Assembly (NCBI GenBank): GCA_020428685.1
Contig: JAGQMJ010000005.1
Location: 1-43,594 of the forward strand
Direction: 5' to 3'
Length of the DNA stretch: 43,594 nt
Origin: Candidatus Kaiserbacteria bacterium
GTDB lineage: Bacteria > Patescibacteriota > Minisyncoccia > Phycocordibacterales > UBA918
This document shows, piece after piece, positions 4,186 to 43,594 of this stretch. Each line of letters begins with the position of its first letter. Position 1 is the stretch's first letter. The notes beneath the pieces are model-generated. The model was not told the origin of the DNA. It saw nothing but the letters and a program-made list of their open reading frames with translations, and did no database searches. A program made the position numbers and the translations under genes.

Positions 4186-5010
4186 ATGAAAAAAATACTC
4201 ATGGCGTTGCTTTTGGTTGTGTTTATTATGCCAGCCACTTCAGATGCGTATGTATCAGTCAATGGTTATTTTCGGGCTGATGGTACTTACGTAGCCCCTT
4301 ATGTCCGAAGTAATCCAAACGGTCTTAAATATGATAATTATGGCTGGACACCAAGCCAAGGACTATACAATCCAACATACGGAACTCGTGGGGCTGCGTG
4401 GGATACACCAACTTGGATTACAGATCCGTACTACTATGAAGGGAAGAGTTTGTATGAGTCAAATCATGCAAGTGTTGGGTCAATAAATACTTATAGTGCA
4501 CCGACCCTACCTTCATACACGTATCCTTCAGGTGCTACAAAAAGTCATACAAAATCATCAGTTTCTGTGCCTAAAAACGCTTCTTTGAATTATTCTGGGA
4601 CGGATTGGTATTGTGACACTGGTTATAAAACGAAGTATGACGATAACTATAAAAAAGTTGGTTGTACAAAGATAAAAGTTCCAACGAATGCGCATTTAAG
4701 TACTTTCTCCAATGATTGGTATTGTGACACTGGATACAGAACAACATACAATAACAGTTATCAGAAAAGTGGCTGTGAGGAGATCGAGGTTCCTTCGCAT
4801 GCGCACCTAAGTACATTCTCTAATGATTGGTATTGCGACTCTGGTTACGAAACTAAGTATAACGATAACTATGAAAAAGTCGGTTGTACAAAAATTAAGA
4901 TTCCTAAGAATGCACATTTAAGTACTTTTTCAAACGACTGGTACTGTGATTCTGGTTATGAGACAAAATACGATAGTAATTACAAGAAAGTTGGTTGTGT
5001 TAAAGAGTAG
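4186..5010 (+). CDS. Secreted protein with four Cys-containing 37-aa repeats
   Basis: A 274-aa protein. The signal peptide is residues 1-20 (MKKILMALLLVVFIMPATSD, with probable cleavage near SDA-YV). The N-terminal module has VNGYFRADGTYVAPYVRSNP, a short motif common in small secreted bacterial proteins. Four 36-37-aa repeats (128-164, 165-201, 202-238, 239-274) each have the pattern P-x-N/H-A-x-L, then D-W-Y-C-D-x-G-Y and a second Cys about 16 residues on, so each repeat can form one disulfide. Similar NAHL...W.C..GY...C repeats recur in surface proteins of Patescibacteria. The next gene starts 2 nt after its stop. The role is unknown; a cell-surface or attachment protein is plausible, and the two thiol oxidoreductases in this window could serve its cysteines. 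Confidence 0.75.
   Translation: MKKILMALLLVVFIMPATSDAYVSVNGYFRADGTYVAPYVRSNPNGLKYDNYGWTPSQGLYNPTYGTRGAAWDTPTWITDPYYYEGKSLYESNHASVGSINTYSAPTLPSYTYPSGATKSHTKSSVSVPKNASLNYSGTDWYCDTGYKTKYDDNYKKVGCTKIKVPTNAHLSTFSNDWYCDTGYRTTYNNSYQKSGCEEIEVPSHAHLSTFSNDWYCDSGYETKYNDNYEKVGCTKIKIPKNAHLSTFSNDWYCDSGYETKYDSNYKKVGCVKE
4567..5007 (+). repeat. Four in-frame tandem repeats of about 111 bp
   Basis: They encode the four Cys-containing repeats of the secreted protein. The last three share the coding words for HLSTFSNDWYCD almost unchanged, while the first is more diverged (NASLNYSGTDWYCD). This suggests recent duplication from the 3' end. Confidence 0.8.
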
Positions 5011-5012
5011 TT

Positions 5013-5300
5013 ATGGAAAAGATTAAGAGTTTTCTCAAAAATAATTTAATATTGCTACTGACCCTTATCATTTCTTTTGTAGCAATGATCAATGCAATTG
5101 ATGCTAACGATAATGCGATGAAAGCGTATGACTATGCTGCTGAAGCTGCAAGGCACTCCAGATATGCAGCTGATTATGCTGAGCAAGCAGCAAGTAACGC
5201 TGAAGATGCAGCTGATTATGCTTCAGAAGCGGCAAGTAATGCAGCTGAGGCTGTTGATGCAGCAAATAGAGCAAGTACAAATGCAATGCTTGGTTGGTAG
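5013..5300 (+). CDS. Small membrane-anchored alanine-rich coiled-coil protein
   Basis: A 95-aa protein with a basic N-terminus and a TM helix or uncleaved signal anchor (about residues 10-28). Four 14-residue (two-heptad) repeats follow over residues 38-93, for example AADYAEQAASNAED and AADYASEAASNAAE. These would form a long alpha-helix or coiled coil rich in Ala, Asp and Tyr outside the membrane. It starts 2 nt after the preceding gene, so the two are probably co-translated and may work together at the surface. It is vaguely reminiscent of alanine-rich outer-membrane lipoproteins (Lpp-like), but there is no lipobox. The function is unknown. Confidence 0.65.
   Translation: MEKIKSFLKNNLILLLTLIISFVAMINAIDANDNAMKAYDYAAEAARHSRYAADYAEQAASNAEDAADYASEAASNAAEAVDAANRASTNAMLGW
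5124..5291 (+). repeat. Four in-frame 42-bp repeats
   Basis: Each 42-bp unit encodes 14 residues (two heptads). The second and third units (from 5166) are nearly the same at protein level; the outer two are diverged. Confidence 0.6.
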
Positions 5301-42166: not shown

Positions 42167-42997
42167 ATGTTAATTGCTTTTTGGGAAGTCCTCAAGGACT
42201 TATGGTTTTTTGTTTTGGGAAAGCAAATTCAGCAACCTGATGCTGCGGTCGCTGTTAGTGTTGATGTGGGCAGGGTGGATAAACAGTCAGATACGGAAAA
42301 GGAAAAGATTGTTCCTGAAATCAAATATGATACCTATGACTCTGAGCTGGTCAGTGGGCAAAAAGTCTTTGTTCGAGTGGATGGTACACCCTGTCTGCAA
42401 AAACCCATTATTTCTTACGATACTGTCGTTGGACGACTGAAGTATGGAGAAGAGGTTTATGTTGATGATTTGGGTAAGGACTTTGTACATGTTCAATCTA
42501 TCAATTTCTCAGGCTGGGTAGAATCATCATCTTTGACAGACAGTAAAAGTTTGGTGTATCCAGAATTTAAATCTGGGTATGTGTATGGCGATTCAAATAG
42601 GGAGGTTGTAAAGCTGCGTCAGTATTTGAAAGACGAGCTGCTAGGAGGTGAGCTAGGATTGGCCTTACAGCCTGAGGAATATGTTGTCTACAGACTCAAT
42701 CAAAGGGGTTCAAGAGTAGCTTGGCCCCAAGTAAGACCACGTCTGGCTGGGGATTGGAAAACAATTTTAAAGGGAGTACGCGGAGCTACTATCAGTCTTA
42801 CTCCTCATACTGGATCGGTGCTAGAAATGATTGATGATGATAATTCTGGCTTCTTGGCAATGGTTGAAGAGGTTAAGCCAGACAATTCAATCAAGATAAC
42901 TGGAGTGGGTCGAGAAAGAGAGGGGGAGTTGCGAGAAGAAGTTTTGGCCCATGCGGAGTGGATTGAGTGGCGACCGGTATTTATTACCTTTACCTAA
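42167..42997 (+). CDS. SH3-like domain protein with degenerate CHAP-like C-terminus
   Basis: 276 aa. It starts 9 nt after the previous stop. Hydrophobic N-terminal segment FWEVLKDLWFFVLG, acidic linker, an SH3-like domain (about 62-130; VFVRVDGTPCLQKP, VVGRLKYGEEVYVDDLGKDF, GWVESSSL), then a C-terminal domain with RVAWPQVRPRLAGDWKTIL, GSVLEMIDDDNSGFLAMVEE and VKPDNSIKITG, which follows the order of a CHAP amidase (A-x-x-W, P-x-x-G-x-[IV], GH[VI]A-x-V). The catalytic Cys and His of CHAP are not seen (GFLAMVEE instead of GHVA-x-VEE), so it may bind rather than cut peptidoglycan. Confidence 0.6.
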   Translation: MLIAFWEVLKDLWFFVLGKQIQQPDAAVAVSVDVGRVDKQSDTEKEKIVPEIKYDTYDSELVSGQKVFVRVDGTPCLQKPIISYDTVVGRLKYGEEVYVDDLGKDFVHVQSINFSGWVESSSLTDSKSLVYPEFKSGYVYGDSNREVVKLRQYLKDELLGGELGLALQPEEYVVYRLNQRGSRVAWPQVRPRLAGDWKTILKGVRGATISLTPHTGSVLEMIDDDNSGFLAMVEEVKPDNSIKITGVGREREGELREEVLAHAEWIEWRPVFITFT

Positions 42998-43014
42998 GCT
43001 GTTAAGATGTGTTT

Positions 43015-43164
43015 ATGAAACCAGTAGCATTCTTAAATGAGGAAACGAACAGCAAAGCTGTGACTATTCCGAATTTATACAGGCGCTTCACTAGATTCGA
43101 CCTGCCTAGGGAGAATATAGTGGTAGCGAGCTGTAAAGACATTTTCTTTTCTAAAATAGTTTAA
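43015..43164 (+). CDS. 49-aa ORF at array unit 1 (duplicated HAD gene start)
   Basis: ATG 43015 to TAA 43162-43164. It begins MKPVAFLNEE, the first six codons of the HAD gene at 43447 (MKPVAFFD), and then runs through hairpin-bearing sequence (43047-43063). -10-like TAAGAT (43003-43008) is 6 nt before the start codon. I take it as a truncated duplicate of the gene's 5' end that has remained open, possibly by chance. It could also be a leader peptide. Confidence 0.35.
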   Translation: MKPVAFLNEETNSKAVTIPNLYRRFTRFDLPRENIVVASCKDIFFSKIV

Positions 43165-43446
43165 TTATGAAACCAGTAGCATTCTTTGATGAATGAAGAA
43201 AGGAACGTAGTGACTATTCTGAATTTACATCCGAATTTACGCCTTTCCTAGCGTAAATTCCTGGATGCAGAGTGTTAACATAATTAACAGATTTAACATT
43301 TTCATTATGAAACCAGTAGCATTCTTTGATAAATGAAGAAAGAAACGTAGTGACTATTCTGAATTTACATCCGAATTTACGCCTTTCCTAGCGTAAATAC
43401 CTGGATGCAGAGTGTTAACACGATTAACAGATTTAACATTTTCATT
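43015..43446 (+). repeat. Tandem array of the HAD gene's first 24 nt and hairpins
   Basis: Units 43015-43166 (152 bp), 43167-43306 and 43307-43446 (140 bp each, five or so differences) precede the gene at 43447. Each starts with ATGAAACCAGTAGCATTCTT (plus TGAT in units 2 and 3) and ends before the next copy. In units 2 and 3 the frame stops after 8 residues. Each contains a mini-hairpin (GAACGTAGTGA at 43203-43213, AAACGTAGTGA at 43343-43353, GAAC-AGCAAAGCT-GTGA at 43047-43063) and units 2 and 3 a 15-bp hairpin (43228-43242/43251-43267) whose loop is CTTTCCTAG, as in repeat A. A -10-like TAACAT precedes ATGs 43307 and 43447 by 7 nt. No gene other than the 49-aa ORF is seen. Confidence 0.8.
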
Positions 43447-43594
43447 ATGAAACCAGTAGCATTCTTTGATATCGACGGTACAGTATTTCGCTCTAGCTTG
43501 TTGATAGAGCTGACAGAGCAGTTGATTAAAAGGGGGATTTTTCCTGAGTCTGCAACGCAAGAATTTCAGGTGGAGTATGAATCGTGGCGATCAC
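43447..43594 (+). CDS. HAD-superfamily hydrolase, 5' part (cut by window end)
   Basis: ATG 43447 reads MKPVAFFDIDGTVFRSSLLI and continues with ELTEQLIKRGIFPES to the window edge, without a stop. Motif I DIDGT (D8, D10) with a hydrophobic strand before it marks a HAD phosphatase, likely of the SerB/phosphoserine-phosphatase-like class with a helical cap starting after FRSSL. It lies directly after the tandem array whose units repeat its first codons; it is the only copy that stays in frame past codon 9 with a normal catalytic motif. Confidence 0.85.
   Translation, partial: MKPVAFFDIDGTVFRSSLLIELTEQLIKRGIFPESATQEFQVEYESWRS

What the first reader, a model, noticed from the sequence alone, without database searches (positions are those of the whole stretch)
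43015..43594. Tandem array repeating the promoter and first codons of a HAD gene
Three units before the gene each start with its first 20-24 nt; the last two are 140 bp and nearly identical, stop after 8 residues and carry a promoter-like TAACAT and two hairpins. It looks as if hairpin elements inserted into the gene's start and were multiplied together with it, leaving one intact gene. Alternatively the short ATG-led frames could be leader peptides tuning the gene. Copy number may vary.
Basis: seen in the sequence. Interest (0 to 1): 0.6.

Follow-up and report, generated by a model that had tools for sequence, protein, structure and literature searches.

The report
Mobile hairpin elements inserted at gene start
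A tiny non-coding hairpin element, scattered through one genus of Patescibacteria, has landed twice near the start of a phosphatase-like gene, each time copying the first 20-odd bases, so that one unbroken gene start remains behind three broken ones; how such elements move is unknown.

Summary
The array is real. Three copies of a HAD gene's first 20-24 nt precede the intact start at 43447. What separates the copies is a dispersed structured element: an ~80-nt two-hairpin core with strong covariation (all 24 pairs vary on both sides across 105 sequences) plus a ~28-nt unconserved tail. It occurs in 30 of 38 genomes of this Patescibacteria (Kaiserbacteria-like) genus, up to 28 copies each. It was found in no other genus of a 384-genome class sample, and not in Rfam, phages or plasmids. 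None of 29 relatives' HAD genes has it. There the gene usually follows the preceding gene closely, so the leftmost broken start (43015) is the original one. Two different subtypes (43034, 43190) inserted within 4 nt of the same codon position, each flanked by a 22- or 27-nt target copy. The second unit was then duplicated in tandem (140 bp). At about ten other loci (tRNA genes, gene starts, a gene end) a copied target also abuts the element's left end to within 1 nt. No transposase family searched for explains the elements. Best reading: a new non-autonomous mobile element making long target duplications. Leader-peptide or promoter roles are not supported. Mobiliser and intermediate (RNA or ssDNA) are unknown.

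The parts
42167..42997 (+). Conserved upstream ORF (276 aa, no Pfam match); its relatives precede the HAD gene in several related genomes
43013..43034 (+). Left copy of target 1 (TTATGAAACCAGTAGCATTCTT): original HAD start, 17 nt after the upstream stop, now truncated
   Evidence: spacing agrees with many relatives
43034..43136 (+). Element 1, subtype B (same first hairpin, longer second hairpin); hairpin stem ACAGC/GCTGT
   Evidence: R1 hit 30 bits; fold z = -5.4; same subtype at L003
43137..43164 (+). ~28-nt unconserved tail of element 1
43164..43190 (+). Second copy of HAD start: right copy of target 1 (43165-43186) and left copy of target 2; reads MKPVAFFDE*
43190..43268 (+). Element 2, subtype A: P1 43190-43194/43223-43227, inner triloop hairpin 43205-43206/43210-43211, P3 43228-43232/43263-43267, P4 43233-43242/43251-43260
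   Evidence: R1 hit 101 bits; covariation
43269..43303 (+).
43304..43330 (+). Third copy of HAD start; reads MKPVAFFDK*
43330..43408 (+). Element 3: tandem duplicate of element 2 (8 differences over the 140-bp unit)
   Evidence: R1 hit 95 bits
43409..43443 (+). Tail of element 3
43444..43470 (+). Fourth, intact copy of the target: real start of the HAD gene
43447..43594 (+). HAD-superfamily hydrolase gene, first 49 codons (contig ends inside the gene)
   Evidence: relative matches PF12710

Best explanation
The array is the scar of a small non-autonomous mobile element specific to this genus. The element has a precise left end (TRAATGA), an ~80-nt core that folds into two adjacent hairpins on the + strand, and a ~28-nt tail without conserved sequence. 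It inserts next to T/A-rich sites and duplicates 10-60 nt of the target, so the target is repeated left of the element and again after the tail. At the HAD gene a subtype-B element inserted about 7 codons into the gene. A subtype-A element later inserted into the regenerated start about one codon further on. The resulting 140-bp unit then duplicated in tandem. Each duplication included the start codon, so an intact gene was kept. Shown: dispersal, structure, empty sites in relatives, duplication abutting the left end. Inferred: the order of events, insertion as one step, and an unidentified mobiliser acting in trans.
For: Dispersed copies in G000 and in 30 of 38 genus genomes, up to 28 per genome. 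Covariation: 542 double-changed cells against 157 in shuffles, 97.3% paired, 24 of 24 pairs changed on both sides (starting alignment). Wobble pairs mark the + strand as the folded one: 117 G-T against 24 A-C cells. None of 29 HAD relatives carries the element; in most with a syntenic upstream gene the gap is 6-80 nt, against 17 nt to the first copy and 449 nt to the intact start here. Left/right duplication: 13 of 140 elements at score >=9 against 0.8 expected; of 13 strong pairs, 12 end within 1 nt of the left end and most restart 18-37 nt past the core. Loci: HAD, four tRNA-Ser, a kinase start, tRNA 3' pieces, a gene 3' end. A kinase gene has independent insertions at different sites in G024 and G005.
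Against: Most elements (over 120 of 140) show no detectable target duplication; if duplication is universal it must have eroded. No Y1, DDE_1, Cas1, reverse transcriptase or extra tyrosine recombinase tracks the elements. The right end has no sequence consensus. Some elements sit at the same gene boundary in several species (efp, rpsS), which could mean a kept host function. In L053 the differences between the two copies fall at third codon positions, odd for a decaying duplicate.
Confidence: 0.78

Rival explanations
1. The elements are host cis-regulatory RNAs: structured leaders or insulators at gene boundaries, and the copied starts are leader peptides or decoy initiation sites that tune the downstream gene.
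For: Strand-specific covarying structure that folds fully as RNA on the + strand. Left ends coincide with gene boundaries: stop codon overlapped in 34 elements, antisense ATG within 1 nt in 13 of 16. Persistence at efp and rpsS in several species.
Against: No orientation preference towards the downstream gene (46 same strand, 49 opposite). Elements at efp, rpsS and topA are antisense to the gene. Copied targets include tRNA pieces and a gene 3' end. Absent from all 29 HAD relatives.
Confidence: 0.12
2. The array arose by ordinary tandem duplication of a promoter-and-start segment that happened to carry a hairpin, without transposition.
For: Units 2 and 3 are a clean 140-bp tandem duplication with 8 differences; a second tandem pair exists at C7 in the same genome.
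Against: Unit 1 carries a different subtype with an unrelated second half. The same hairpins lie at many unrelated loci and genomes. Target copies abut the element's left end at unrelated genes.
Confidence: 0.06
3. The repeats are brought in by recombination with DNA from relatives: a fragment element-tail-gene start recombines at the resident orthologue, leaving the old start on the left and the donor's on the right.
For: At L053 the two start copies differ almost only at third codon positions, and L072 differs by a silent change plus a lost ATG, as expected between orthologues.
Against: In HAD, L252 and the tRNA-Ser loci the copies are identical or nearly so; the join is always at the element's left end; antisense and 3'-end insertions do not fit simply.
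Confidence: 0.12
4. Assembly artefact: collapsed or expanded repeats in a fragmented metagenome assembly (64 contigs).
For: Several elements lie close to contig ends, and this contig itself ends inside the HAD gene.
Against: Units differ from each other, and equivalent structures occur in other, independently assembled genomes.
Confidence: 0.04

Closest known systems
bcr repeats of the Bacillus cereus group (PMC6542083)
   Same: Lineage-restricted, 100-400 bp, dispersed, non-coding repeats with mobile-element features and no known dedicated transposase
   Different: bcr mobility is linked to a TTTAT motif and a site-specific-recombination-like mechanism; here the duplicated target is long (10-60 nt) and differs at every locus, the core is a different fold and the hosts are Patescibacteria
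REP elements with RAYT transposases (PMC3733652)
   Same: Short hairpin repeats scattered in intergenic space, inverted pairs present, sometimes inside genes
   Different: REPs are 20-40 bp with GTAG or CGTC at one end; here an ~80-nt two-hairpin core with TRAATGA. No R1 element within 1.5 kb of any Y1/RAYT gene and several element-rich genomes lack Y1. REP-type transposition is not known to duplicate targets (own knowledge)
IS1549/IS1634 insertion sequences (PMC2266710)
   Same: Direct repeats of long, variable length (8-514 bp reported)
   Different: Those are DDE insertion sequences of 1.5-2 kb with terminal inverted repeats; here no terminal inverted repeat was seen, and PF01609 occurs in 2 of 38 genomes
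Casposons (PMC10359463)
   Same: Target duplication, including insertions at tRNA genes
   Different: Carry Cas1 and terminal inverted repeats with a 14-nt duplication in the cited case; Cas1 in 1 of 38 genomes here
SINE-like retroposons of eukaryotes (own knowledge)
   Same: Folded non-coding RNA-like body, one precise end, variable target duplications, no coding capacity
   Different: No RNA intermediate shown; reverse transcriptase found in 9 of 38 genomes without relation to copy number

Membership tests
REP/RAYT elements | Linked or co-occurring Y1 (RAYT) transposase | tested here: not met
   No R1 hit within 1.5 kb of 30 Y1 loci; G000, G013, G021, G033 rich in elements without Y1
REP/RAYT elements | 20-40 bp palindrome with GTAG or CGTC tag at one end | tested here: not met
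   80-nt core, two hairpins, left end TRAATGA
Classical MITE of a DDE insertion sequence | Terminal inverted repeats | tested here: inconclusive
   No sequence consensus in the 50 nt after the core; no inverse of the left end seen by eye in tails, no formal test made
Classical MITE of a DDE insertion sequence | Short fixed-length target duplication | tested here: not met
   Duplications 11-46 nt by alignment, variable
IS1634-type long-repeat insertion sequences | DDE transposase of the IS4-related group in the genome | tested here: not met
   PF01609 in 2 of 38 genomes, not in G000
IS1634-type long-repeat insertion sequences | Long variable direct repeats | tested here: met
Casposon or CRISPR-type integration | Cas1 integrase | tested here: not met
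   Cas1 in 1 of 38 genomes
Integron attC sites | Integron integrase with cassette array | tested here: not met
   Mostly one tyrosine recombinase per genome, none found in G000; attC consensus boxes themselves were not scanned for
Bacterial retroelement | Reverse transcriptase tracking the element | tested here: not met
   RVT_1 in 9 of 38, absent from G000, G014, G021, G013, G024
Known RNA family (Rfam 15), including HEARO and T-box | Covariance-model match over the element | tested here: not met
   No match in the window; only tRNA and T-box neighbours in other loci
Cis-regulatory leader RNA | Consistent sense orientation upstream of a regulated gene | tested here: not met
   46 same strand, 49 opposite
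Mobile element (general) | Same sequence at unrelated sites, with empty sites in relatives | tested here: met
Mobile element (general) | Observed transposition | not testable with these tools
   Needs strains or long-read time series

The most novel reading that the evidence does not exclude
The element is a bacterial SINE-like retroposon: a small structured RNA with an exact 5' end that is copied into DNA and inserted by target-primed synthesis, giving variable target duplications, driven by a host or borrowed enzyme not yet recognised.
Probability: 0.07. Interest if true: 0.92.

Novelty: new variant of a known kind. Interest (0 to 1): 0.58.

Why it matters
Patescibacteria have very small genomes with few insertion sequences, yet in this genus a non-coding hairpin element has spread to as many as 28 copies, at the edges of essential genes (tRNAs, ribosomal protein genes, efp, topA). 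It duplicates 10-60 nt of target, and none of the recombinase families searched here accounts for it. Either an unrecognised mobilising enzyme exists or a host enzyme does the work. The duplication at gene starts and tRNA 5' ends also shows how a gene can survive an insertion inside its own first codons. The structure model gives a ready probe for other genomes.

Tried and rejected
Rfam search at gathering and relaxed thresholds: no family. Y1/RAYT transposase link: no co-occurrence and no element within 1.5 kb. Reverse transcriptase, DDE_1, Cas1, tyrosine recombinase: none tracks copy number. Larger autonomous versions: no left-flank copy beyond 140 nt except tRNA repeats and known tandem arrays; no recurrent transposase-like gene next to elements, recurrent neighbours look like conserved chromosomal genes. 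Replication-strand bias expected of ssDNA transposition: none after correcting for gene strand. Shared 28-nt tails between copies as sign of carried-along donor flank: only tandem or compound arrays and orthologues share them. Viral contigs, phages, plasmids: no real hit. DNA-specific triloop idea: most inner loops are GNA, but DNA parameters do not form P1 while RNA parameters do, so undecided. Promoter inside the tail: not above chance. Literature: nothing found on such elements in Patescibacteria.

Full report
Observation. The window is the whole contig C55 of an 808-kb, 64-contig, 88%-complete genome. Copies of the HAD start lie at 43015, 43167, 43307 and 43447. Copy 1 shares 22 nt with the real start and copies 2 and 3 share 27 nt. 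Units 2 and 3 are 140 bp with 8 differences. Frames 2 and 3 end after nine residues, eight of them shared with the gene; frame 1 stays open for 49 residues. A search for the whole family inside the window finds only this array.

The material between the copies is a dispersed element. Using the array as query, similar pieces appear at other contigs of the same genome and in 22 of 34 other same-genus genomes but in none of 24 genomes from other families of the order. Thirty-six copies were aligned. The structure is P1 TRAAT/ATTTA, a tandem G.A step, two further conserved pairs (four in the RNAalifold fold), an internal loop around a 2-bp hairpin with a mostly GNA triloop, then a second long hairpin closed by a stem with a CT bulge. 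It has 150 double-changed cells against 47 in shuffles, and collapses when slid by one column. A covariance model R1 built from it matches 30 of 38 genus genomes, up to 28 copies, and in a 384-genome class sample only genomes of this genus (stricter filters, so weak relatives could be missed). On 105 distinct sequences all 24 pairs vary on both sides and 97.3% of cells pair (that alignment was fitted to the model). G-T cells outnumber A-C cells 117 to 24, so the + strand is the one that folds. RNA parameters give the covariation structure as minimum; DNA parameters miss P1.

The first element in the array (43034-43136) has the same first hairpin but a different, longer second hairpin (subtype B, as in L003 ahead of thrS). 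So the HAD start was hit by two different subtypes within 4 nt.

Insertion, not relic duplication. HAD relatives were found in 26 related genomes by whole-genome search and in 72 contigs by name search; the 29 examined all lack the element. Contig titles of relatives are mostly Patescibacteria, Kaiserbacteria or Paceibacterota. In relatives with a recognisable syntenic upstream gene the gap to the HAD start is mostly 6-80 nt. Here it is 17 nt to the first copy and 449 nt to the intact start. The leftmost, truncated start is therefore the ancestral one and everything to its right, up to 43446, is gained.

Target duplication is a property of the element. Left flanks of 140 elements were compared with their right flanks; 13 reach an anchored score of 9 or more against 0.8 expected from mismatched flanks. 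Leaving out compound arrays of genome G021, 13 strong pairs were found, 12 of them ending within 1 nt of the element's left end. The right-hand copy usually starts 18-37 nt after the core, often at 28. Targets include the 5' ends of tRNA-Ser genes (L005, L015, L045, L047), the start of a kinase gene (L053), 3' parts of a tRNA on the other strand (L263, L298) and the 3' end of a gene (L252, 44 nt). Weaker cases are L072 and L027. Most other copies show none, which I read as erosion in an old family; that is an inference.

Position. In 34 elements a stop codon of the left-hand gene overlaps the element's left end, and in 13 of 16 cases with an antisense start codon nearby the ATG lies within 1 nt. 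Several of these are orthologous (efp, rpsS). There is no orientation preference towards the right-hand gene and no replication-strand bias. The left flank prefers T-T-R. This fits insertions tolerated at gene edges, though long persistence at efp and rpsS leaves room for a host function.

Mechanism. Y1 transposases (none within 1.5 kb), DDE_1, Cas1, reverse transcriptase and tyrosine recombinases do not track the elements. Absence of an enzyme in an incomplete assembly is weak evidence for any one genome, but element-rich genomes more than 90% complete (G014, G021, G013, G024) lack RT, DDE_1 and Cas1. Long variable direct repeats are known for IS1549 and IS1634, with no mechanism proposed (PMC2266710). 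The mobiliser remains open.

Verdict. The leader-peptide reading is not supported as a general role. The element family appears undescribed in Rfam and in the papers searched, and resembles bcr and REP repeats in kind while differing in structure, target duplication and host.

Noticed in passing
L252 3545-4046, L257, L300, L303, L310 (genome G021): Compound arrays of several R1 cores joined by conserved connecting segments, near-identical at several loci; may be a younger, larger form of the element.
   Followed up: partly
L003, L028, L036, L040, L279: Elements sit inside or just behind T-box-like leaders of aminoacyl-tRNA synthetase genes (thrS, aspS) in several genomes.
   Followed up: partly
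L005, L015, L047, L045: Four independent-looking hits on tRNA-Ser 5' ends; three share one subtype and the same tRNA position, suggesting a site-preferring sub-lineage.
   Followed up: partly
L032, L052, L038, L044, L064: Elements nested inside hairpin loops of other elements or carrying smaller hairpin inserts of the same design.
   Followed up: no
L275, L286, L297, L269 (rpsS) and L251, L253, L258, L044 (efp): Elements abut the start codon antisense at the same gene in different species, with different sequences but intact pairing.
   Followed up: partly
window 4603-4958: About 3.2 tandem copies of a 111-bp unit inside an ORF (4186-5010), encoding a repeated NDWYCDxGYxTxY protein motif.
   Followed up: no
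window 5013-5300: Small ORF with a hydrophobic N-terminus and an Ala-rich AAxxAxxAADYA repeat.
   Followed up: no
L009 (G000:C7 1-300): A second tandem pair of R1 elements in the same genome, each unit carrying a terminator-like hairpin with a changed stem, at a contig end.
   Followed up: partly
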